Shown: piece after piece, positions 1 to 11,854 of the stretch
Numbering within the stretch: position 1 is the stretch's first letter
Layout of the letters: each line of letters opens with the position of its first letter
From: Hyphomicrobiales bacterium
GTDB taxonomy: Bacteria > Pseudomonadota > Alphaproteobacteria > Rhizobiales > Xanthobacteraceae
Length of the DNA: 11,854 nt
Reading direction: 5' to 3'
Assembly (NCBI GenBank): GCA_017304505.1
Contig: JAFKKQ010000345.1
Coordinates: forward strand, 1-11,854
Translations under genes and position numbers: made by a program
The notes under the pieces: generated by a model
What the model saw: the letters and a program-made list of their open reading frames with translations, nothing else
The model's database searches: none
What the model was told of the DNA's origin: nothing

Positions 1-474
1 GTTTTGCAAGAAGATGTGACGTACACGCGTTACGCCGACGACCTGACTTTTTCCGCAAGACGTACGGGGTTTTTGAATCATGTTGAGAAGTTTCTCAGGG
101 AGGCGGTTGTCAACACTAAGTCGCCGCGGCTCGCGATAAACGAGGAAAAAACCGTCCTGGCCACTCGCAAGTACAAGCGGATGGTAACCGGCTTGATATT
201 GACTAACGACTGCAAGGTATCGATCGGTTATGCACGGAAGCGTGCAATACGTGCGGCTTTGAATAACGAGAAATACGGTCGTCTTTCTTTACAGCAGCGA
301 ATGCATTTGGCGGGGCTGTTGGCATTCGTTAATGACGTCGAGCCTGAGTTCTTGATGAAGTTGAAGACCAAGTACGGCGACGACCTAATTAATGGACTTA
401 AGAATCTTAGGGTTTCCAAAGCTGACCAGATGCTCCGAACGCGTCCGGCGGCCTATTTTGATGAGCATGAATAA
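1..474 (+). CDS. Retron-type reverse transcriptase, C-terminal fragment (5' end outside window)
   Basis: The frame is open from base 1, so this is the last 157 codons of a longer gene. An RNA-directed DNA polymerase of this type copies a structured RNA into DNA. Visible motifs are the catalytic box YADD (fragment residues 11-14) within a TRYADDLTFSA context, the palm/thumb stretch INEEKT at about 46-51, and VTGL at 62-65, preceded by KYKR. A VTG motif after the YADD palm is characteristic of retron reverse transcriptases. The C-terminal stretch LAGLLAFVNDVEPEF also fits the retron-type thumb. The first 240 bases are about 51% GC by hand count, well below the neighbouring genes, suggesting horizontal acquisition. 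The msr-msd RNA and the effector gene, normally upstream or fused, are not in the window. It could instead belong to another bacterial RT class (DRT/Abi-like); group II intron origin is less likely because no maturase or HNH domain follows. RT assignment is firm, retron subtype moderately so. Confidence 0.85.
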   Translation, partial: VLQEDVTYTRYADDLTFSARRTGFLNHVEKFLREAVVNTKSPRLAINEEKTVLATRKYKRMVTGLILTNDCKVSIGYARKRAIRAALNNEKYGRLSLQQRMHLAGLLAFVNDVEPEFLMKLKTKYGDDLINGLKNLRVSKADQMLRTRPAAYFDEHE

Positions 475-478
475 GTTT

Positions 479-508
479 AAGGCCGGGCTTTCGCCCGGCC
501 TTCGTTTT
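479..508 (+). terminator. Rho-independent terminator after the reverse transcriptase
   Basis: A perfect 10-bp stem (AAGGCCGGGC at 479-488 with GCCCGGCCTT at 493-502) closes a TTTC tetraloop and is followed by CGTTTT. It begins four bases after the RT stop codon. The position and the T-run suit an intrinsic terminator for the RT transcript. The stem could also act on the opposite strand against read-through from the thiamine operon. Confidence 0.8.
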
Positions 509-640: not shown

Positions 641-2730
<2,090 letters not shown>

Positions 2731-2738
2731 CATCGAAC

Positions 2739-3266
2739 TCAAGCAGCCTTCGCGGGTAGTCCAAGCCAGTCGCGCACGCGCGCGTCCGGATTGGGGTTTT
2801 GGGTGACGTCGCTGACGACGGCGATGGAATTCGCGCCGGCGGCGAAAATGTCCTTGGCGTGTTCGAGCTTGATGCCGCCGATGGCGACCAGCGGGATCGC
2901 GCCGATGCGGCGCTTCCATTCAGTGATGCGGGCGATGCCCTGCGGCGCGAAGCGCATCGACTTCAGCGTCGTCGTGAAGATCGGGCCCAGCGCCACGTAA
3001 TCCGGTGCATGGCGCAGCGCGTTATCCAGCTCGGCGTCGTCGTGGGTGGAAAGGCCGAGCGTCAGCCCCGCGGCGCGGATCGCCTTCACGTCGGCATCCG
3101 CGAGGTCTTCCTGGCCGAGATGCACATGCTGCGCGCCGGCCTCGATGGCCGCGCGCCAGTGGTCGTTGACCACGAGCCTGGTCGCGGTGCCCTTCGTCGC
3201 CGCCAGCGCCTCGCGCACCAGCGCGAGCGCATCGGCGGCGTTCAGGTTCTTGGCGCGAAGCTGCAC
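2739..3266 (-). CDS. thiE: Thiamine-phosphate synthase ThiE, N-terminally truncated
   Basis: ThiE couples HMP pyrophosphate with the thiazole phosphate carboxylate to give thiamine phosphate. The family order is clear: VQLRAK at the start, VVNDHW (Asn34 and Asp35, the pyrophosphate/Mg region), HVHLGQEDL, LGLSTHD, YVALGPIFTT and PLVAIGGI, all parts of the TIM barrel. At 175 residues from the GTG at 3264-3266 it is short; homologues are typically about 200-215 residues and begin with a strand like YPIVDSA before VQLR. In frame upstream there are only four codons (P V G T) before the thiG TGA stop at 3279-3281, with no ATG. I looked in the other two frames for the missing part and did not see it. 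The first barrel strand therefore appears deleted, and activity is doubtful unless this is an assembly fault. Any translation probably depends on reinitiation after thiG. Confidence 0.9.
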   Translation of the reverse strand: MQLRAKNLNAADALALVREALAATKGTATRLVVNDHWRAAIEAGAQHVHLGQEDLADADVKAIRAAGLTLGLSTHDDAELDNALRHAPDYVALGPIFTTTLKSMRFAPQGIARITEWKRRIGAIPLVAIGGIKLEHAKDIFAAGANSIAVVSDVTQNPNPDARVRDWLGLPAKAA

Positions 3267-3278
3267 CGTGCCGACGGG

Positions 3279-4061
3279 TCAGGATACGGCATGCCAGAAC
3301 GGTGTCCCGACGACAGGGGTTGAGGGGGAGGCGAAGTCGCGCGCGTCCATCAGTCCGGCCTCGTAGCCGACGCGGCCGGCCTCGACGGCGAGGCGGAAGG
3401 CGCCCGCCATCGCCACCGGGTCGGCGGCCTTGGCGACGGCGGTGTTGAGCAGCACGGCGTCGTAGCCGAGTTCGAGGGCCTGCGCGGCGTGCGAGGGCGC
3501 GCCGAGGCCCGCATCCACCACCAGCGCGATGTCCGGCAGCCGACGGCGCAGCAGCTTCAGCGCGTCGCGGTTGACGATGCCGCGCGCGCTGCCGATCGGC
3601 GCGGCCCACGGCATCACCACGCGGCAGCCGGCATCGACCAGCTTCATCGCCACGCCAAGGTCGTCGGTGCAATAGGGATACACCTCGAAGCCGTCCTTGA
3701 TCAGGATCGCGGCGGCCTCGACCAGGCCGATCACATCCGGCTGCAGCGTCTCGTCGTCGGCGATCACCTCGAGCTTGATGCGCGGCGTGTGGAACAGTTC
3801 GCGCGCCAGCTTCGCGGTGGTCACGGCCTCGCGCACGCTCTTGCAGCCGGCGGTGTTCGGCAGCACGGCGATACCGAGTTCATGGATCAGCGACCAGAAC
3901 GCATCGCCGGTCTTGCCGCCCGCCATTTCGCGGCGCACCGAGACGGTGACGATCTGCGCGCCCGAGGCGCGGATCGCCTGCTGCATGATCGCCGGCGACG
4001 GGTAGAGGGCAGTGCCGATCAGCAGCCGGGAGGAGAATTCGGTATCGTAGAATTTCACCAT
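3279..4061 (-). CDS. thiG: Thiazole synthase ThiG
   Basis: ThiG condenses deoxyxylulose 5-phosphate, the dehydroglycine produced by ThiO, and sulfur delivered by ThiS thiocarboxylate to make the thiazole phosphate of thiamine. The 260-residue protein is full length for the family. It shows [13 protein letters not shown] at the start, [16 protein letters not shown], and the Schiff-base lysine in IKLEVIAD (Lys96). Phosphate-binding and barrel motifs follow: [39 protein letters not shown] and the tail [14 protein letters not shown]. The start ATG has a GGCGGAG ribosome site and lies 16 bases after the thiS stop, so it is translated from the same message. Its TGA stop is in the same frame as the shortened thiE that follows. 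Confidence 0.97.
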
Positions 4062-4077
4062 TGCACTCCGCCTTGCC

Positions 4078-4275
4078 TCAGCCGCCTTGCCTTGGCGTGA
4101 GAATTTCCACGCAGTCGCCGTCCTTCAACGGCGCCGACGCCCAGCGGGCGCGTGGCACCACGTCGTAGTTCACCGCGACCGCAAGCTGCTTGCTCTCGTA
4201 TTCGAGTTCATCGAGCAGCGCCTCGATATGCGCGGCGTTCGTTTCTCGCTGCTCGCCATTGACGATCACAAGCAT
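4078..4275 (-). CDS. thiS: Sulfur carrier protein ThiS
   Basis: ThiS is a small ubiquitin-fold protein whose C-terminal glycine is adenylated and converted to a thiocarboxylate, the sulfur donor for ThiG. The 65-residue product has the expected length, begins MLVIVNGE, has the conserved [11 protein letters not shown] segment, continues DGDCVEIL, and ends in the required Gly-Gly. Its ATG overlaps the last 10 bases of thiO, indicating translational coupling. The adenylating partner (ThiF or MoeB-like) is not in the window. Confidence 0.94.
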
Positions 4276-5312
4276 CGCATCACCTGGTTATCGACCTCGC
4301 CGCGCTGGACATAGGCGGCGGTCAGCTCGGCCAGTGCCGGCGCGAGCAGGAAACCGTGACGATAAAGCCCGTTCACGGTGATGGTTTGTCCCTTGATGTC
4401 GATACGCGGCAGGTTGTCGGGGAAGGCGGGGCGGAGCCCCGCGCCGATCTCGACGATGCGCGCCTCGCCGAACGCCGGATGCACGGCATAGGCCGCGCTC
4501 AAAAGCTCCAGCGCCGAGCGGACGCTGACGCCGCGATCCTCGCTCTCGATCGAGGTCGCGCCGATCATGAAAATATTGTCTTCGCGTGGAATGATGTAGA
4601 GCGGCCAGCGTGGATGCAAAAGCCGCACGGGGCGCGACAGCGCGATCTCGTCGGTCTCGACGATGATCATCTCGCCCTTGACGCCGCGCAGGTCCGGCGC
4701 GACATCGCGCGCGGCAATCCCGCGGCAATCGACGACCAGATGGTTGGCGTCGCCGATCTCGTGCTCGTTGTGGAAGCGAATCTCGATGCCCAGCGCTTCG
4801 AGCCGGGCGCGCAACTTCGGCAGCACCCGGCGCGGCTCCACATGGCCTTCGTCCTTGAAGAACAGCGCATCCTGGAACCGGCCTTCGAGAATGGGCTCAA
4901 GCTTGGCGATCTCGCGGCCCGACAGCCGCTTGTGGCCGCCGGACAACCGGGCGAAGCGCTCGAAATCGGCGCGGTCGCGCGGGTGGGCCACGACCAGCGA
5001 GCCGTTGAACGGCGTATCGGGAAGCTCCTCGCGCCACAGATCGAGCGAGCGCGCGCCAAGGCGGGTGATGACCGGCTCCGACGATTCGCCTTCGCACCAG
5101 GGCGCGAGCATCCCGCCGGCGAAATGGCTGGTGGCCTGCGTCATCGACACATCGCCGCGCTCGAAAACCGTGACGCGGCGGCCGGCCTTGGCCAGCGCGA
5201 GCGCCTGCCACGTGCCGGCGATGCCGGCGCCGATCACATGCGCTATTGCACCGCGCGCCGCCTTGGTTGGCGCAGCCGCAGTCTCGCGTGTGGATGAACC
5301 GTTCTGAAGCAT
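4266..5312 (-). CDS. thiO: Glycine oxidase ThiO (FAD-dependent)
   Basis: ThiO oxidises glycine to the imine used by ThiG in thiazole formation. The 348-residue product has the FAD-binding Rossmann motif GAGIAG at about residues 28-33, an acidic end of the second strand (VTVFERGD), the D-amino-acid-oxidase-type segment SHFAGGMLAPW, and the C-terminal flavin-contact region GLRPAFPDNLPRI with NGLYRHGFLLAPALAE. I chose the ATG at 5310-5312. Upstream in-frame codons run to 5444 but translate the riboswitch and cannot be coding. AAGGGA (5318-5323) sits five bases before this ATG and is the 3' end of the TPP aptamer. It is the first gene of the operon, and its stop overlaps thiS. Confidence 0.94.
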   Translation of the reverse strand: MLQNGSSTRETAAAPTKAARGAIAHVIGAGIAGTWQALALAKAGRRVTVFERGDVSMTQATSHFAGGMLAPWCEGESSEPVITRLGARSLDLWREELPDTPFNGSLVVAHPRDRADFERFARLSGGHKRLSGREIAKLEPILEGRFQDALFFKDEGHVEPRRVLPKLRARLEALGIEIRFHNEHEIGDANHLVVDCRGIAARDVAPDLRGVKGEMIIVETDEIALSRPVRLLHPRWPLYIIPREDNIFMIGATSIESEDRGVSVRSALELLSAAYAVHPAFGEARIVEIGAGLRPAFPDNLPRIDIKGQTITVNGLYRHGFLLAPALAELTAAYVQRGEVDNQVMRCL

Positions 5313-5316
5313 CCCT

Positions 5317-5403
5317 GTCCCTTCGCCGGCATGACCCGGATCAGGTTCAAAGGGTCGCCGCCTTCGCGGCCTCTCAGCTCCGTTTTGGAGCACCCCTCGG
5401 AAC
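5317..5403 (-). ncRNA. TPP riboswitch (THI box)
   Basis: The - strand carries the conserved THI-box words in order: GAGGGGTGC at the 5' side, CTGAGA (5372-5377), ACCCTTTGAACCTGATC (AACCTGATC at 5339-5347), CCGGGTCATGCCGG, and GCGAAGGGA at the 3' end (5318-5326). The closing P1 helix can be drawn as GUUCC (5399-5403) with GGGAC (5317-5321). The 3' strand of P1 contains the thiO Shine-Dalgarno (AAGGGA), and only five bases separate the aptamer from the ATG. There is no room for a separate terminator hairpin, so thiamine pyrophosphate binding most likely blocks ribosome access. Regulation mode is inferred from layout; the aptamer identity is secure. Confidence 0.95.
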
Positions 5404-5409
5404 GCCTCT

Positions 5410-5437
5410 AATTTAGGCTCGTGGGCCGAAGTGTCAA
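5410..5437 (-). promoter_or_regulatory. Candidate sigma70-type promoter for thiOSGEC
   Basis: Read on the - strand, TTGACA (5432-5437) is followed after 16 bases by TAAATT (5410-5415). The implied start of transcription, around 5403, coincides with the first base of the TPP aptamer. This agreement between promoter and leader supports the call. The -10 box is imperfect and the spacing is one base short of ideal. Confidence 0.6.
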
Positions 5438-5484
5438 CGCACACCGCCGCATGGCGTCGCTGCTGTACGCAACGATGCTGTGCG

Positions 5485-5525
5485 GAAAACGCATCGGGCG
5501 CGGAGCTTTCGCGCCGCGCCCGATG
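5485..5525 (-). terminator. Rho-independent terminator of the OmpA-family gene
   Basis: A 12-bp perfect inverted repeat (CATCGGGCGCGG at 5492-5503 and its complement at 5514-5525) with a 10-base loop is followed on the - strand by CGTTTTCC. It lies 20 bases after the stop of the OmpA-domain gene and upstream of the thi promoter, so it separates the two transcription units. Confidence 0.8.
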
Positions 5526-5545
5526 TTTCCGCCGTATCCGGCCGC

Positions 5546-7213
5546 CTATCGTGGCGGCGCCGCGCCGGCCTGCTGTTCGATCAGCGGCGTGATGCGCCGC
5601 ACCGCGACGCGGCGATTGGCGCGCTCCGGCCCACCGGTCTGCACCTTCAGATATTGCTCGCCGTAGCCCTGCGTCACCAGATTCTCGGGTGGAACCTGGA
5701 ACTGTTCGGTCAGCGCCACCGCCACCGCTTCGGCGCGGCGATCCGACAGCGACAGGTTGTCCTCATCGTTGCCGACGGCGTCGGTGTGGCCTTCGATCAT
5801 GAACACTTCGCTCGGGTTGCGTTGGATCGTGTTGTTGAGCGCGCGCGCGATCACCGCGAGCCGGTCGACCTGATCGGGCGTGAGCTGCCATGAGCCGGTG
5901 TCGAAGTTGATATCGAGATCGACACGCGGCATGCGATCGCGAATCGCCGCGCTGTAGCGGACCTGGTCGAGCGTGTAGCGCTCGGGGAGCGCTTCCACCG
6001 GCGGGGCCGTGAACGCACCGTAAATGGTGTCATATCCCGCGTCATCGGCATCGACGATGTAGTGGTTGCGCGGGATACGGATCACCGGCGGCGGCAGCGC
6101 GATGAAGAAATTGCCGGCGCGCGGCCTGCTGTAGTCGTTGTTGATGATGATGACGTCACGGCCGTCGCGATCGCGGCGCATGCGCCGCAGCAGGCGTCCG
6201 TTGTCGTCAATGACGTTGATGATGCGCACGCCGTTGGGCCGCTCGACGATCGTCTCGCGATGGCCGCCACGCCGTTCGACACGGACATCGCGCGAGCCGA
6301 TGGCGAAGCGGTTGGCGTCGTCGTGGCGGATGATGGTCCGGTTGTCCTGGCGGATGATGGTGCGGTCGCCCTCGCGGATGAACGTGCGATTGCCTTCCCG
6401 CGTCTCCTTTCGCTCCTGGCGAAGCTGGTCGATCTTCGGCGCGGGCGATTGTCCGTCGCGGCGGATGAACTCACGCGCGTCTCGCGGCCGCGGCGGCTGG
6501 CCCTGCGGGGTCATCATCGCCGGATTGGGGCCGCGCATGGCCGGTCCGCCCGGCGGCTGTTGGCCGGCCGCCGGCGGCGCCCCGCGCTGCGGCTGCACCG
6601 TCGAGGGGGCGATTTGCGGCTGCGGCTGCCGGGCGGCAGGACCGTTGGGAGGTCCGCGGCGCTCTTGCGTGGCGGGCGCGTTCGGCGGCTCACGCCGTTC
6701 CTGCGCGGCAGGTGGCGGCGGGCGCCGTCCGGGCGGCTGTGCGGTCGGAGGCGTGGCTTGCGGTTGTTGCGGGCGCGCGGCCGGGGCTTGCGTCGGATGC
6801 GCCGGCGGCTGCGGGCGCTGCACGGCCGGAGCCTGAGGGCGCTGCATGGCGGGCGGTTGGCGGCGTTCCTGCACCGCAGGGCCGCGTGGCGGCTGAGCCG
6901 TCGGGCGTTGCGGTTGCGCGGCGGGCGCGTGCGGCGGGCGCGGTTGAGCAGCCGGAGCAGGCGGCTTCGGCGGAGCGGGCCTCGCTGCGGGCGCGTGTTG
7001 CGGCTTGGGCGCCTCGTGCCCAGGCCCGCGCGGCGGCTGGCGCCGGCGCTGATCCGCGTTGTCGGCCGGTGCGGCTTGCGCCATGCGGAAGACGCCCTCG
7101 GTTGCCGTCGCTGCATGGCTTGTCGAGGACACCGATGCGACGGTCAGCAACGCGGTGCCGGCGAGCAGAAGCGACGTGACGGCCGTCGGGGCGATACGAT
7201 GGCGCGAACTCAT
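5546..7213 (-). CDS. OmpA-family protein with long proline-rich linker
   Basis: Probably an outer-membrane or periplasmic protein that binds peptidoglycan. From the ATG at 7211-7213 it has 555 residues. A signal peptide ends near SHA (about residue 34). A low-complexity region rich in Pro, Ala, Gln and Arg (about 55-260) has recurrent PPA/QP/QERR units. A charged segment near 270-310 contains repeated (D/N)RTIIR units. The C-terminal OmpA domain (about 431-545) contains EGHTDAVG with Asp478 and LSDRRAEAV with Arg493; their 15-residue spacing matches the Asp/Arg pair that contacts diaminopimelate in OmpA proteins. This start is preferred over the in-frame ATG at 7238-7240 because GGAGAA precedes it at a workable distance, while nothing precedes the other. 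No beta-barrel domain is seen. The specific role is unknown. Confidence 0.9.
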   Translation of the reverse strand: MSSRHRIAPTAVTSLLLAGTALLTVASVSSTSHAATATEGVFRMAQAAPADNADQRRRQPPRGPGHEAPKPQHAPAARPAPPKPPAPAAQPRPPHAPAAQPQRPTAQPPRGPAVQERRQPPAMQRPQAPAVQRPQPPAHPTQAPAARPQQPQATPPTAQPPGRRPPPPAAQERREPPNAPATQERRGPPNGPAARQPQPQIAPSTVQPQRGAPPAAGQQPPGGPAMRGPNPAMMTPQGQPPRPRDAREFIRRDGQSPAPKIDQLRQERKETREGNRTFIREGDRTIIRQDNRTIIRHDDANRFAIGSRDVRVERRGGHRETIVERPNGVRIINVIDDNGRLLRRMRRDRDGRDVIIINNDYSRPRAGNFFIALPPPVIRIPRNHYIVDADDAGYDTIYGAFTAPPVEALPERYTLDQVRYSAAIRDRMPRVDLDINFDTGSWQLTPDQVDRLAVIARALNNTIQRNPSEVFMIEGHTDAVGNDEDNLSLSDRRAEAVAVALTEQFQVPPENLVTQGYGEQYLKVQTGGPERANRRVAVRRITPLIEQQAGAAPPR

Positions 7214-7345
7214 GATTTGGCGTTCTCCGTTCTGGCGCATTGGCGCTGTAGCGCGCGCGTGTAACGTGCCCGGTTGAACTTGGCGATTTCGTGACTGCGC
7301 GTGGGTTTGTTTCGGCGCGCCGATGAACGGACGTTTATCGAACGC

Positions 7346-8938
7346 TCATTGTTGCAACGCGATCTTGCGCACCAATGCTCGTGCGCTGCCGTCCGCTTCG
7401 GCAATGACGCGCAGTGTTGTCGAATCGAATTCGACATCGACCAGCCGCAGATCGTTGACCGCGGCTTCGACCTCCACGCCGTCGACCGGCTTCTGGAAAT
7501 CCGCGATCGCGTCCTGGATGCTCTTGCGCGCGCTCGCTGCGAACGGCTTGAGATCGATCACCGCGTTCTGCGCCAGCGCGTCCTGCAGATAAGGGATCGC
7601 GGCGCGCGCGGCCGTGCCGAGCAGGCCGAACGCCGCCTGCGATTGCACGTCGAGCGAGATGTCGGTCAGCCGCATGATCTGCTGCGCCTGATCGAGCTTG
7701 GGCTTGCCCCAGATGTGAACCGTCGCCTCCGCGCCCAGGCCGAACCAGCTTCTGTTTTCTTTCGCCTGCACGCGCAGCGAGATCAAAAGCCGGTCGCCCG
7801 ACGCCGAGACTTTTGCCGCCAGCACCGTGACCTTGCCCGGTGCGTCGCCGCTCTCGGGGAAGGTTCGGCCCTTGAGTTGTTGCTCCAGGACGCGATTCAA
7901 TTCGGTGAACGGCACATCGATCGGCACCGCGATGCTGACCTTGCCCTGATCGGTCTGCTGCAGCGTCAGATCGAGTTTTGCGGGAAACGGACACTCGGGC
8001 TTGGTCTGTTGGGGCACGATACGCGTCTCGGCCTGCACGCCCAGTGTCAGGATCACCCAATCCGGCACGATGCGCGGCTGCGCCGCGAACGCCTTGGTCG
8101 GCCGTACCTCGAGCCACAGGTTCGGCGCGCCGGCGGCGGCCTGGCCGAGCCGGATCGAGCGGCACATCTGCATCCATTGCTTGCGCGCGGCCGTCTCAAG
8201 CGTGCGGTCGTCGCGCAGGCGGACCGAAAGCTTGCTGATCTGCTCGCCCACGGTTTTGTCGAGCAGCGGCTTCACCTCGTTCGACACGTTAAGCTTGATG
8301 CCGGCGATGGTCATGCCGCCGTCGGCCAGCGAGACGTTGCCGGTCAGGTTGGGCTCGATCCGCCAGTTCTGCAGCAGCGACGGATGCGAGGTCACCGAGA
8401 CGTTGCCGCGGATATCGGCGCGCTGGTCGAGCGCGCGCGTGGTGAGCTTTTCCACGCCGCGGCCGAGCTTGTTGCCGAGAAGTCCGGTGATCGTGCCGGC
8501 GAGACGGCCGGATTGGTCGGCGACCTGGCCGGTGGCGCGAAGCGCGCCGTTGAGCGTCGTCGCGATGTTCAAGCCTGACGCCACGCTGGAGACGACAATC
8601 GGGCCGCGCGAGATGCTCCAGCCGATGTCGGCCTTGCCCAGCAGATCGGCGAGCGGGTTCTCGTTCTTGCCGTCGAGGCCGCGCGGGGCATTCGCTTCCA
8701 TCACGTCGCGGATGGCGAGATCGGCGACCGCCACCGGCGCGACGATGACCGAGTTGCGGGTCACCGGCTGCAGCGGCGCCAGGGCGGCCAGCGCCGGACG
8801 GCTCTCATCGAGTGGATTCTGGGGAAAGAACCGGTCGAGCGCCCAAAGCGTGCCGCCGAAGAACACGGCGACGACGGCAACACTGAACAGGATGGTGCGA
8901 AACGACAGGTGGAATGGCAGCGTTGTTCTCCCCTTCAA
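7346..8938 (-). CDS. DUF4403 family protein, membrane-anchored
   Basis: The 530-residue product has one N-terminal hydrophobic segment (about residues 14-34, FRTILFSVAVVAVFFGG...). A long periplasmic-type portion rich in beta-forming sequence follows. Segments such as RGPIVVSSVASGLNI, LLQNWRIEPNLTGNVSLADG and the C-terminal VDLEVEAAVNDLR-like region fit the DUF4403 family of unknown function, whose members carry repeated lipid-transfer-like halves. I recognise the family by overall pattern, not by a diagnostic motif. The start is a TTG at 8936-8938, with CGGAG four bases before it. No better start is visible upstream and the next GTG falls inside the membrane segment. The OmpA-domain gene follows after 132 bases, so a shared envelope role is possible but unproven. 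Confidence 0.8.
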   Translation of the reverse strand: MKGRTTLPFHLSFRTILFSVAVVAVFFGGTLWALDRFFPQNPLDESRPALAALAPLQPVTRNSVIVAPVAVADLAIRDVMEANAPRGLDGKNENPLADLLGKADIGWSISRGPIVVSSVASGLNIATTLNGALRATGQVADQSGRLAGTITGLLGNKLGRGVEKLTTRALDQRADIRGNVSVTSHPSLLQNWRIEPNLTGNVSLADGGMTIAGIKLNVSNEVKPLLDKTVGEQISKLSVRLRDDRTLETAARKQWMQMCRSIRLGQAAAGAPNLWLEVRPTKAFAAQPRIVPDWVILTLGVQAETRIVPQQTKPECPFPAKLDLTLQQTDQGKVSIAVPIDVPFTELNRVLEQQLKGRTFPESGDAPGKVTVLAAKVSASGDRLLISLRVQAKENRSWFGLGAEATVHIWGKPKLDQAQQIMRLTDISLDVQSQAAFGLLGTAARAAIPYLQDALAQNAVIDLKPFAASARKSIQDAIADFQKPVDGVEVEAAVNDLRLVDVEFDSTTLRVIAEADGSARALVRKIALQQ

Positions 8939-9024
8939 CGTTCTCCGATTTTAGTCCGCACGCCGTCGCGGTGCCAGCGTTCAAGTTTCAATGCAGACCC
9001 GACAAAGCGCCGCATGAGGACGGC

Positions 9025-9064
9025 GCGATGTCTGGTGCGATGACTGATGCGATGTCTGGTGCGA
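9025..9064. repeat. Degenerate 12-bp tandem repeat in intergenic region
   Basis: A 16-base word GCGATGTCTGGTGCGA occurs at 9025-9040 and again at 9049-9064, separated by the related TGACTGAT. The block reads as about three degenerate 12-base units (GCGATGTCTGGT, GCGATGACTGAT, GCGATGTCTGGT). It lies between the dehydrogenase stop and the DUF4403 start and is not inside any gene I accept. A protein-binding or slippage-derived origin is possible. Confidence 0.7.
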
Positions 9065-9081
9065 GGTTTTGGGGTAACCGG

Positions 9082-10002
9082 TTAAGGCTGTCCCATGCGG
9101 TAAAGCTTGACCGCGGCGTAGACGGCCTCGCTCGCCGGCGTCGGCACGCCGAGTTCTTTGCCGAGCGACACCACCTTGCCGGTGAGCCAGTCGAGCTCGA
9201 GCCGGTTGCCGGCTTCGAGGTCGTGGAACATCGACGCCTTCATGCCGGGAGGCGCGTTCTCGGAGAACGTCATGCGGTCGTCGATCCAATCGTCCGGCAC
9301 CTTCGCGCCGGACTTCTGGCCGACGGCGAGGCATTCCGTCATCAGCTTGCGGTAGAAGGCGCGGGTGTCGGGATCGGCCAGGATCTTGCCGAGCGGCTGC
9401 CGCGTCATGCAATTCGCGCCGGCGAGCGACGACAGGAAGATGAATTTCTGCCAGCGCTCGCGGTTCATGTCGTCCTGGAGCTGCACGTCGACGTTGGCAG
9501 CCTTTGCTGCTTCGGCAAACGCTGCGAGCTTGGCGTCGGGCTTGCCGTCGATACGACCGCAGCGAAGCGTCGCAAACTTGCTGGTGTGACGAACCACGCC
9601 CGGTCCGCCGAGCACGCTCGCGATGTAGGCCGTGCCGCCGACCGTCTGGTCCTTGCCGAGGATTCCCGACACGCGCTCGTAACTGTCGACGCCGTTTTGC
9701 AGCGTGATGACGCGCGTGTCCGGCCCGACCAGGGGCTTCGCCAGCTCGGCCGCGGCCTCGGTGTCCCAGAGCTTGACGGCAAACAGCACGATATCGACCG
9801 GGCCGACGTCCTTGGGATCCGACGTGGCGTTGACGTTTTTGAGGTGTACGTCGCCGTGGACGCTCTCGATCGTGAGTCCGTTCTTGCGCAGCGCCTCGAG
9901 GTTGGCGCGGCGCGCGATCAAGGCCACGTCGTGCCCCGCTTGCGCCATCCGCCCGCCGAAGTAGGCGCCGACGGCGCCCGCTGCCATTGCTGCAATTCGC
10001 AT
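9082..10002 (-). CDS. Ketopantoate reductase family (ApbA/PanE-like) dehydrogenase
   Basis: The family reduces 2-dehydropantoate to pantoate with NADPH in pantothenate synthesis, although many paralogues act on other substrates. The 306-residue product starts MRIAAMAAGAVGAYFGG, a Rossmann nucleotide motif in which the first Gly of GxGxxG is Ala. Asn103 in LQNGVD and Lys186 in RERWQKF align with Asn98 and Lys176 of E. coli PanE, and Glu269 in RLELDW with Glu256. However, the two pantoate-side Asn (Asn180, Asn184 in E. coli) correspond to Leu190 and Ala194 here. The fold and hydride-transfer residues are therefore kept while the substrate pocket differs, so I do not assign panE. The ribosome site is weak (GGTGA). 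It stands apart from its neighbours by 143 and about 100 bases. Confidence 0.87.
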   Translation of the reverse strand: MRIAAMAAGAVGAYFGGRMAQAGHDVALIARRANLEALRKNGLTIESVHGDVHLKNVNATSDPKDVGPVDIVLFAVKLWDTEAAAELAKPLVGPDTRVITLQNGVDSYERVSGILGKDQTVGGTAYIASVLGGPGVVRHTSKFATLRCGRIDGKPDAKLAAFAEAAKAANVDVQLQDDMNRERWQKFIFLSSLAGANCMTRQPLGKILADPDTRAFYRKLMTECLAVGQKSGAKVPDDWIDDRMTFSENAPPGMKASMFHDLEAGNRLELDWLTGKVVSLGKELGVPTPASEAVYAAVKLYRMGQP

Positions 10003-10041
10003 CGTGTGTCACCCGGTTGATGTTTCGGAGCCGGGTTTATC

Positions 10042-10080
10042 GAAAGCGAAGGGGCGAGGTCCAGTGGCCTCGCCCCAAAA
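10042..10080 (-). terminator. Probable terminator of the L,D-transpeptidase gene
   Basis: GGGGCGAGG (10051-10059) and CCTCGCCCC (10068-10076) form a perfect 9-bp stem with an eight-base loop, 25 bases after the transpeptidase stop. On the - strand it is followed by TTCGCTTTC, an interrupted T-run. On the + strand AAAA follows, which does not suit termination in that direction. Confidence 0.6.
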
Positions 10081-10100
10081 TCGCACGACCGATGCCGGGA

Positions 10101-10997
10101 TCAGTACAGGCGCGATGCCGCAGAGCCGTGGGCGAGCGGGCGGCCCGCCGTGTTGGGCACCGTCATCGCCGCCGGCCGCGGCGCGTCGTTTTCCGAGATG
10201 TGTTCATGAGTTCGCGAGCGCGTACGCGCCACCTCGGGGTTGCGATGTCCGTTCATCGGCAGCACCACGACCTTCGCGCCGACGGACACGCGATTGAACA
10301 GGTCGATCACGTTTTCGTTGGTCAGCCGGATGCAGCCCGACGACACGCGCTTGCCGATGGTGCTCGGATCGTTGGTGCCGTGGATGCGATAGAGCGAGTT
10401 GCCGAGATACATCGCGCGCGCGCCGAGCGGATTGCCAGGGCCGCCGGCCATCATGCGCGGCAGGTACGGCTGGCGCGCAATCATCTCCGCCGGCGGATGC
10501 CAGTCCGGCCACTCCTGCTTGCGCGCGACGTGCTCGACGCCCGCCCAGGTGAAGCCCTCGCGTCCGACGCCGATGCCGTAACGGATCGCGCGGTCGTTTC
10601 CGAGTATGTAATAGAGATAGGTGTGCGGCGTATCGATGATGATCGTGCCGGGCTTCTCGTTGCTGTGATAGGCGACAACCTGGCGACGGAAGCGCTCGGG
10701 CACCACGGCGGACGAGTTGTCCGGCGCGGCGCGGTAATCCTGCCGGTAATCCTGCCGATAATCCTGCCGATAATCCTGCCGATAATCCTGCATGGTGCGC
10801 CCGTCAGGCATCGCCTCGGGCCCATTGCCGCGCGGCATCACCATCGGCGGTCCGAAGCCGGGGAAGGGCTGATCGATGTAGACATCCGGATAATCGGCGT
10901 CCTCGTCGACACCGAGTGGCGCCGCATAGGCAGCCGTGGACAGAATCGTGACGGCCAACGCCGCGGTGGCGAGATGCCAATGACCAATTCGGAACAT
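10101..10997 (-). CDS. L,D-transpeptidase (YkuD domain), secreted
   Basis: YkuD enzymes form 3-3 peptidoglycan cross-links or attach proteins to peptidoglycan in the periplasm. The 298-residue product starts with a signal peptide (MFRIGHWHLATAALAV..., cleavage near AYA, residue 25). Next come an acidic/proline stretch and a DYRQ repeat (about 71-88). The YkuD domain follows, with IIIDTPHTYLYY, GIGVGREGF and the active-site pair His206 (RIHGTND) and Cys222 (SSGCIR); the 16-residue spacing is normal. The tail after about residue 250 is basic and polar. The ATG at 10995-10997 is preceded by GGGAGAG; an upstream in-frame start at 11030 would put 11 extra residues before the signal peptide and has no ribosome site. 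The active-site variant SSGC (instead of SHGC) is familiar in alphaproteobacterial members. It is 70 bases downstream of trmO. Confidence 0.93.
   Translation of the reverse strand: MFRIGHWHLATAALAVTILSTAAYAAPLGVDEDADYPDVYIDQPFPGFGPPMVMPRGNGPEAMPDGRTMQDYRQDYRQDYRQDYRQDYRAAPDNSSAVVPERFRRQVVAYHSNEKPGTIIIDTPHTYLYYILGNDRAIRYGIGVGREGFTWAGVEHVARKQEWPDWHPPAEMIARQPYLPRMMAGGPGNPLGARAMYLGNSLYRIHGTNDPSTIGKRVSSGCIRLTNENVIDLFNRVSVGAKVVVLPMNGHRNPEVARTRSRTHEHISENDAPRPAAMTVPNTAGRPLAHGSAASRLY
10732..10791 (-). repeat. Five 12-bp tandem repeats inside the transpeptidase gene
   Basis: Five consecutive 12-base units lie in frame: CGGTAATCCTGC twice, then CGATAATCCTGC three times (+ strand). On the coding strand they give a repeating Gln-Asp-Tyr-Arg, between the signal peptide and the catalytic domain. 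Near identity, with only one position varying, suggests recent expansion by slippage; copy number may vary between strains. Confidence 0.95.
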
Positions 10998-11067
10998 GGG
11001 GTACTCTCCCGACGCCCACCTCACCCACATTGCATCTATAACGAGCCAGAGGGGCGGCGGTTCCCGG

Positions 11068-11598
11068 TCAACGCCGGTCGGCGTGCCAGCCGACGCGGGC
11101 GTCGGCGATGGAATCTGTGGAGGAGAAATAAGGCTTGATGTCGACGAGCGGTGTGCCGTCGAGGCAATCGAGCCCGACCACGTGGAGGGTCGAGCCCTCC
11201 ACCTTGCGCAACTCCACCACGCTCAACGCAATCGGGTTGGGCCGCACCGGCGACCGCAGCGAGAAGGTCGGCTTGCCGGAGCCGTATTGCGCCGGGACCT
11301 GGACCACGAGATCGCGCCGCGCCCGGTCCATCCAGTAGAGCACAATCAGGTGAGAGCAGGTTTCGACGCCGGGCAGCGCCTGTTGCCAGCGCGGGTCCAC
11401 CTCGATGGTGCAGACGGTGCCGGACTCGCGGGCCTGGCGGGCGTTCTTGGGGCACTCGCTGCGGGTTTTCCACGGCGTGCGGATGCGGCCGATGAAATAA
11501 AGCTGGGCGTCGAAATGGTCCGGCAGCGCGACGGCCACTTCGCCGTCGCGGATGCCGGAGGCCGGATCGTTCGATTGGGATGTCGTATCGGATGTCAT
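11068..11598 (-). CDS. trmO: tRNA (N6-threonylcarbamoyladenosine(37)-N6)-methyltransferase TrmO (TsaA/YaeB family)
   Basis: TrmO uses S-adenosylmethionine to methylate t6A37 in certain threonine tRNAs, giving m6t6A. The 176-residue product shows the family motifs in order: FIGRIRTPW (35-43), CPKNARQ (49-55), LIVLYWMDRARRD (84-96), LRSPVRPNPIALSVVEL (114-130) and CLDGTPLVDIKPY (145-157). It lacks the longer C-terminal extension of the E. coli protein (about 235 residues), which is usual for short alphaproteobacterial forms. The ATG at 11596-11598 has AAGG about ten bases upstream. Function is inferred from the family; the older name is VirR/TsaA. Confidence 0.9.
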   Translation of the reverse strand: MTSDTTSQSNDPASGIRDGEVAVALPDHFDAQLYFIGRIRTPWKTRSECPKNARQARESGTVCTIEVDPRWQQALPGVETCSHLIVLYWMDRARRDLVVQVPAQYGSGKPTFSLRSPVRPNPIALSVVELRKVEGSTLHVVGLDCLDGTPLVDIKPYFSSTDSIADARVGWHADRR

Positions 11599-11737
11599 GA
11601 CCGCGTACCTTAGGCGAAAGCGACCGTTCGGCCCAAGGTCGTTCGAGTGAGATTGCCCGGCCCAACGATCGCGCGACCCTGCACATTTCCGGCGGCACCA
11701 CCTGAACGTGCTCGCGGTATGTCTATTCCCTCATAGA

Positions 11738-11767
11738 TTGATTTTATCACAATATTAACGTTAGAGT
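11738..11767 (+). promoter_or_regulatory. Possible promoter in AT-rich stretch
   Basis: Bases from about 11725 to 11775 are distinctly AT-rich compared with the rest of the window. TTGATT (11738-11743) and TAGAGT (11762-11767), 18 bases apart, could be -35 and -10 elements of a + strand promoter for the gene entering at the right edge. The match is weak and the implied leader would be very short. Confidence 0.28.
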
Positions 11768-11770
11768 TGT

Positions 11771-11790
11771 ATTGCCAAGAGCATGGCAAT
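11771..11790. repeat. Inverted repeat over the start codon of the right-edge gene
   Basis: ATTGCCA (11771-11777) and TGGCAAT (11784-11790) are perfect complements around a six-base AGAGCA centre, which holds the weak ribosome site and the A of the ATG. It could be an RNA hairpin limiting translation or an operator for a dimeric regulator. The symmetry is seen directly; the role is inferred. Confidence 0.5.
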
Positions 11791-11854
11791 CGCTGGTTTC
11801 CATGCTGTCCTCGTGCCCGTCGCCGGCCTGCTGCTGTTTCTTTCCGTGGCCGGT
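11783..11854 (+). CDS. Start of a possible secreted or membrane protein (cut by window end)
   Basis: An ATG at 11783-11785 opens a frame that stays open to the end of the window (24 codons). The translation MAIAGFHAVLVPVAGLLLFL is a hydrophobic segment like a signal peptide or first membrane helix. A weak AAGAG ribosome site lies just before it, and an AT-rich promoter-like stretch lies upstream. The gene would be divergent from trmO. Too little is present to name it, and it may not be the true start. Confidence 0.4.
   Translation, partial: MAIAGFHAVLVPVAGLLLFLSVAG

What the first reader, a model, noticed from the sequence alone, without database searches (positions are those of the whole stretch)
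1..508. Retron-like reverse transcriptase tail in low-GC DNA next to the thiamine operon
The fragment has YADD and VTGL motifs typical of retron reverse transcriptases. Its GC content (about 51% over 240 bases counted) is visibly lower than the neighbouring DNA, and a strong terminator follows at once. Retrons are anti-phage systems with an RNA gene upstream and a toxic effector. Nothing that looks like an effector follows the RT here, so any partner must be upstream or fused to the N-terminus.
Basis: partly seen in the sequence, partly recalled or inferred. Interest (0 to 1): 0.7.

Follow-up and report, generated by a model that had tools for sequence, protein, structure and literature searches.

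The report
Truncated type II-A retron beside thiC
The contig starts inside the reverse transcriptase of an ordinary anti-phage retron of a known type (II-A); its toxic partner and RNA gene are not in the assembly, and the place it sits in, the end of the thiamine gene thiC, may be a recurrent landing site for such genes.

Summary
Window 1-474 encodes the last 157 residues (a little under half) of a retron reverse transcriptase, in 49% GC DNA against 67% for the rest, followed by a strong terminator (479-502). The window is the whole contig C315 of a fragmented bin, so the upstream part is cut off. The fragment scores best with type II-A RTs (PADLOC RT_II-A 154.5 bits, RT_I-A 132.4; NCBIfam St85), and a tree puts it in a supported clade with nine II-A RTs. 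All nine have the NDT-like effector upstream; the eight with sequence further upstream have a structured msr-msd RNA before it. No effector after the RT is what type II-A predicts. It is a new member of a known kind. Two side findings are less ordinary, and only partly followed up: (1) the 3' flank of thiC is variable in this bacterial family; it holds another II-A retron fragment, NACHT and PDC-S36 proteins, and in two genomes duplicated thiC tails around inserted genes; (2) in 15 of the 21 retron loci compared, the a2 strand of the RNA lies on or beside a likely effector start codon, unlike in six viral-contig loci.

The parts
1..474 (+). C-terminal 157 residues of a type II-A (St85-family) retron reverse transcriptase; 5' part cut by the contig end. 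Residue 1 matches about residue 174 of most relatives.
31..42 (+). YADD catalytic motif of the RT
184..192 (+). Invariant in an alignment of 19 sequences, the window included, but absent in L015.
479..502 (+). Intrinsic terminator directly after the RT stop codon
558..585 (+). Second terminator-like hairpin between the RT and thiC
641..2497 (-). thiC, whose 3' end faces the RT; neighbour and possible insertion site, not part of the retron

Best explanation
Window 1-474 is the end of a type II-A retron operon laid out as msr-msd RNA, NDT-like effector, RT, terminator, lying downstream of thiC. Shown here: the RT type, the terminator, and the order of the operon in its clade. Inferred from the family: the RT copies the msd part of the RNA into msDNA; RT, RNA and msDNA hold the NDT effector inactive; phage infection frees it and the cell stops growing or dies. 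About 1.6 kb of upstream DNA (RT N-terminus, effector, RNA) is inferred to be missing from the assembly, perhaps because the retron is not in every strain of the sampled population.
For: PADLOC RT_II-A 1e-45 (154.5 bits) over RT_I-A 4.9e-39 (132.4); NCBIfam retron St85 RT 2.7e-36; nine PDB sequences match, seven of them named as retron RTs, best 22et (6.2e-25). Tree of 35 RT tails: window in a clade of 10 rows, the other 9 all II-A, support 97/97. NDT_II-A effector upstream in 9 of 9 of these: overlapping or abutting the RT start, or 26 bases before it in L010. RNA with covariation: 24 of 45 pairs changed on both sides, 87.4% of cells paired against 74.5% in shuffles, 0 of 500 as high, all slid versions lower (the structure was derived from the same eight sequences). 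The RNA model built from these eight then found 13 of 15 other II-A loci with upstream sequence.
Against: Effector, RT N-terminus and RNA are not seen in this genome, so an orphan RT tail cannot be excluded. PADLOC separates II-A from I-A by only 22 bits on this fragment. The II-A label is not one clade in the tree (3 changes). The RNA model missed L017 and L031.
Confidence: 0.92

Rival explanations
1. A type I-A (Septu-type, PtuA/PtuB) retron RT, close kin of II-A.
For: RT_I-A scores 132.4 bits; a chain named Retron I-A Ec78 is among the best solved-structure matches.
Against: In the 16 tree rows labelled I-A a 528-573 aa ORF starts between 37 bases before and 5 bases after the RT end; here a terminator follows and no same-strand gene. 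The window's II-A clade has 97/97 support.
Confidence: 0.04
2. A dead remnant: only the RT tail survives and the rest was lost by deletion.
For: No effector, RNA or RT N-terminus found elsewhere in the bin. One relative, G1084, has an effector match with a TGA, so decaying copies may exist.
Against: The frame is open to the very first base of the contig, keeps YADD and VTG, and aligns with relatives over its length; the terminator is intact. The contig end, not a junction with other DNA, cuts the gene.
Confidence: 0.1
3. A chimeric contig: an RT end from another organism joined to thiC by the assembler.
For: GC steps from 49% to 67% at the junction; 1-640 matches nothing in the thiC loci of relatives; no read data.
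Against: The thiC flank of G020 holds another II-A retron fragment, and flanks of other relatives hold other low-GC genes; GC tends to be low near thiC.
Confidence: 0.04

Closest known systems
Retron-Sen2 (St85), type II-A; NCBIfam retron_St85_RT NF038233 and STM3845_fam effector NF038232
   Same: RT family; in relatives the same effector family upstream and an msr-msd RNA before it
   Different: Here only the RT tail is assembled; its NCBIfam score (125 bits) is below the full-length cut-off (235); three full-length relatives pass at 337-340 bits
Retron type I-A (Ec78)
   Same: Close RT kin; [quoted passage not shown]
   Different: Loci labelled I-A have a gene right after the RT; here a terminator follows
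Group II intron, DRT2, DRT3a, DRT4 reverse transcriptases
   Same: RT palm domain
   Different: Scores of the three full-length relatives 23-54 bits against cut-offs of 200-450; the fragment itself matches only the group II model of these, at 15.1 bits

Membership tests
Type II-A retron (St85 family) | RT of the II-A / St85 profile | tested here: met
   Best of 44 PADLOC families, 1e-45; best NCBIfam, 2.7e-36, below the full-length cut-off, as a fragment would be; tree clade 97/97
Type II-A retron (St85 family) | YADD and VTG motifs | tested here: met
   Window 31-42 and 184-192. VTG is in 8 of the 9 clade relatives, not in L015
Type II-A retron (St85 family) | NAxxH (region X) motif in the RT N-terminal half | not testable with these tools
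   That half is cut off; present in 9 of 9 clade relatives. Label recalled.
Type II-A retron (St85 family) | NDT effector gene next to the RT | tested here: inconclusive
   Upstream DNA not assembled; not found elsewhere in the bin. Present in 9 of 9 clade relatives
Type II-A retron (St85 family) | msr-msd RNA with a1/a2 repeats | tested here: inconclusive
   Upstream DNA not assembled; model R1 finds nothing in the bin (150 of 192 candidates scored). Present in the 8 clade relatives with sequence, which are the ones the model was built from
Type II-A retron (St85 family) | msDNA made; phage defence | not testable with these tools
   Needs experiment
Type I-A retron | PtuA-like ATPase gene directly after the RT | tested here: not met
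   Terminator at 479-502, next gene thiC on the other strand
Group II intron RT | Group II RT/maturase profile | tested here: not met
   15.1 bits against a cut-off of 300

The most novel reading that the evidence does not exclude
The 3' end of thiC is a landing site for small defence cassettes in this bacterial family: an incoming cassette carries its own thiC tail and leaves a duplicated tail behind. The type II-A retrons of this bacterial class, some of which land there, tie toxin to antidote in cis: the a1:a2 stem that the RNA needs for reverse transcription also covers the start of the toxic effector gene, so a transcript folded as retron RNA cannot be translated into toxin.
Probability: 0.3. 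Interest if true: 0.6.

Novelty: new member of a known kind. Interest (0 to 1): 0.3.

Why it matters
As a retron it adds one truncated member to a populous group: 2065 protein clusters match the full-length RT of its relative L018 at E <= 1e-40 (these may include I-A RTs). The wider value is in two testable leads: the thiC flank as a place to look for unknown defence genes in this family, and an RNA fold that may lock toxin translation in many type II-A retrons.

Tried and rejected
Type I-A and group II intron readings were tested and rejected; DRT RTs score far below cut-off in the full-length relatives. Rfam at gathering score found a TPP riboswitch in the window and tRNAs in L002 and L003, no retron RNA. 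The viral-contig scan with the effector as query found nothing. A first alignment of ten RNAs misplaced a1 and a2 and was replaced by one of eight trimmed RNAs, dropping L016 and L134; L017 was never aligned. The model then found L016 and L134 but not L017 or L031. A thiC-plus-hotspot literature search was useless because thic matched thick. The search of the fragment itself only admits proteins of 0.55-1.75 times its length, so its many 150 aa hits that begin at one internal Met are no evidence for split RTs. Of 80 viral loci only L018-L043 (26) were examined; L044-L097 (54, at most 34% identity) were dropped, as were L006, L007, L013, L014 from genome searches, and from the tree L034, whose RT runs off its record. 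In the tree, II-A labels of L021, L022, L025, L031, L032, L036, L037 and all 16 I-A labels rest on gene position and reading the ORF, not on a profile search. Hotspot frequency was not measured against other chromosomal places: only 10 proteins from 7 of 18 flanks were scanned with profiles, and I picked them because they lay near thiC and looked foreign or defence-like. In one search, 16 of 259 genomes with a thiC tail (of 296 searched) show more than one match, but only G015 and G018 were shown to be duplications; G017 looks like one alignment split in two; G912, a weak case, shows a single match; the other 13 were not looked at.

Full report
What is there. Bases 1-474 are the open 3' end of a gene for 157 residues of a reverse transcriptase, ended by TAA and a strong terminator at 479-502. 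GC is 49.2% against 66.6% for 641-11854, and codon-position GC is 53/36/60 against 62/43/93 in thiC, so the gene is foreign in composition. The window is the entire contig C315 of a bin of 550 contigs, given as 79% complete. The first window residue corresponds to about residue 174 of most relatives (YADD is residue 11 here and 182-187 in eight of nine clade relatives; 200 in L015, whose start is uncertain), so a little more than half of the protein is missing.

Which reverse transcriptase. Pfam gives only a weak RVT_1 match, below its cut-off. The specific libraries agree: PADLOC RT_II-A first of 44 families (154.5 bits; RT_I-A 132.4), NCBIfam retron St85 RT (125.4 bits; cut-off 235 for a full protein), and nine PDB sequences, seven of them named as retron RTs and two only as RNA-directed DNA polymerase. 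In a tree of 35 RT tails (window, 18 II-A, 16 I-A) the window falls in a clade of ten whose other nine are all II-A, support 97/97. II-A as a whole is not one clade there (3 changes), and L017 and L011 sit on long branches.

The missing half, as read in relatives. In Rhizobium chutanense, R. wenxiniae and Rhizobium sp. RU33A (L002-L004, 57-58% identical) the RT starts inside the end of a 314-315 aa gene, which is the NDT_II-A effector of PADLOC (7.9e-70, 7.5e-68, 1.5e-69) and the St85 effector of NCBIfam, above its cut-off. The six further members of the clade have it too: 9 of 9. Right before the effector of L002-L004 lies a hairpin with 27-base arms. Eight such RNAs, aligned, give a structure of 45 pairs in which 24 change on both sides, with every measure above all 500 shuffles and above all slid versions; as the structure comes from the same alignment, this leans in its favour. 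The model built from those eight found the RNA in 13 of 15 other II-A loci with upstream sequence (misses L017, L031), including G020; L036 and L037 among the 13 are near copies. Among the 17 thiC flanks without a known NDT gene it gave one chance-level match (E 0.93, L137).

Is the rest of the retron in the same bin. It was not found. The effector, a full-length RT (only the window's own tail) and the RNA gave nothing else. The effector searches have positive controls: the L003 query found 3 of 385 class genomes and the L018 query 6 of 391 family genomes, down to 27% identity. The genome-wide RNA search had no such control in the same tool. No other contig carries the first 21 bases of the window with up to one mismatch. 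The simplest account is loss in assembly or binning.

How it most likely works. From PMC12548924 (abstract and passages read): in retrons the RT, the RNA and the RT-DNA together hold a toxic effector until phage infection releases it. PMC8989520 (passages read) says that the accessory proteins of Eco1, Eco9 and Sen2 (St85) are predicted to have an N-terminal NDT-like and a C-terminal DNA-binding domain. I infer the same for this operon. No functional step was shown for this copy.

The place. In 29 thiC loci of relatives, some of which end inside or just after thiC, DNA similarity to the window stops at thiC; bases 1-640 match none. Downstream of thiC, 18 relatives were fetched for up to 15.7 kb. 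GC averages 0.606 and 0.622 in the first two kilobases and 0.649-0.658 further out (the 15 of 18 flanks that reach 8 kb); the lowest of the first eight kilobases is one of the first two in 8 of 15. Profile scans of 10 hand-picked proteins from 7 flanks gave: a second II-A retron in G020 (NDT_II-A 2.1e-39; RNA model E 0.00023, 0.000013), read away from thiC, the opposite way to the window, and cut by the end of its contig; PDC-S36 in G001 (1.6e-108); a NACHT protein at 45% GC in G008, without a PADLOC match; zeta-toxin-like AAA proteins in G005 and G018; an ORC-CDC6-like ATPase in G018; TPR repeats in G006; nothing for three of the ten. In the same genus a conserved gene lies 1.6-4.3 kb from thiC in four of five long flanks (G001, G004, G007, G008; not G006). 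Most telling, the thiC tail is duplicated in direct orientation around inserted genes: 542 bases at 92% identity in G015, and about 58 codons in G018 between the ATPase and the zeta-like gene. G912 showed a weak third case (50% over 44 residues) that one search does not bear out. The five other family genomes with the effector have it on another contig or at least 250 kb from thiC, so thiC is one site among several: 2 of 7 family genomes known here to carry II-A retron genes.

The start-codon overlap. In one search I compared 21 loci in which the model found the RNA. In 15 of them (L002, L003, L004, L009, L010, L011, L015, L016, L019, L134, L146-L149, L151) a possible effector start lies between 4 bases before and 8 bases after the last base of a2. 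In L009, L010, L011, L019 and L147 the start codon itself is inside the a1:a2 helix. In the six others, viral contigs whose hosts I did not check (L021, L022, L025, L032, L036, L037), the nearest ATG or GTG is 53-68 bases away in five, and L037 has only TTG candidates at 23 and 47; TTG also occurs at 34 in L022 and 23 in L036. By eye a terminator stands between in L021, L022, L025, L032, L036 and L037. Start codons are inferred, some frames are open further upstream (L019, L134, L151), the pairing that the script found in L016 is not the expected one, that in L148 is only 5 pairs, and L146 offers only TTG nearby.

Literature. Searches list no paper that presents thiC as a retron site or a2 over an effector start; I saw listings and, for a few, passages. 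PMC10121019 and PMC12629846 (word look-ups) do not contain thiC. PMC5704556 (passages) names ThiC among thi genes in a figure legend on B. fragilis CRISPR neighbourhoods; I did not follow that. PMC12548924 and PMC8989520 were read in passages.

Verdict. A partial, ordinary type II-A retron in an interesting place.

Noticed in passing
Downstream of thiC in relatives: L128, L130, L132, L134, L138, L140 (G001, G005, G008, G020, G018, G015): The thiC 3' flank is variable and tends to low GC; it holds a second II-A retron fragment (G020), PDC-S36, NACHT and zeta-like genes, and duplicated thiC tails around inserts in G015 and G018.
   Followed up: partly
L002, L003, L004, L009, L010, L011, L015, L016, L019, L134, L146-L149, L151: The a2 strand of the retron RNA overlaps or abuts a likely effector start codon in these 15 of 21 loci compared, unlike in six viral-contig loci.
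   Followed up: partly
window 5301-5407 (-) and 641-5444 (-): TPP riboswitch ahead of a DAO-family oxidoreductase of the ThiO kind, a 65 aa ThiS-like ORF at 4078-4275, ThiG, ThiE and ThiC: a complete-looking thiamine operon. The names ThiO and ThiS are recalled.
   Followed up: partly
window 10735-10791: 12-base tandem repeat (4.8 copies, 97% match) that gives a repeated DYRQ run in a YkuD L,D-transpeptidase.
   Followed up: no
L148 (G1084): Type II-A effector match with one in-frame TGA beside an open RT frame: a possibly decaying retron.
   Followed up: no
L002 6098-6184 and 10677-10763: Two tRNA matches of equal score flank the retron region of Rhizobium chutanense, as one would expect of an island inserted at a tRNA gene.
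   Followed up: no
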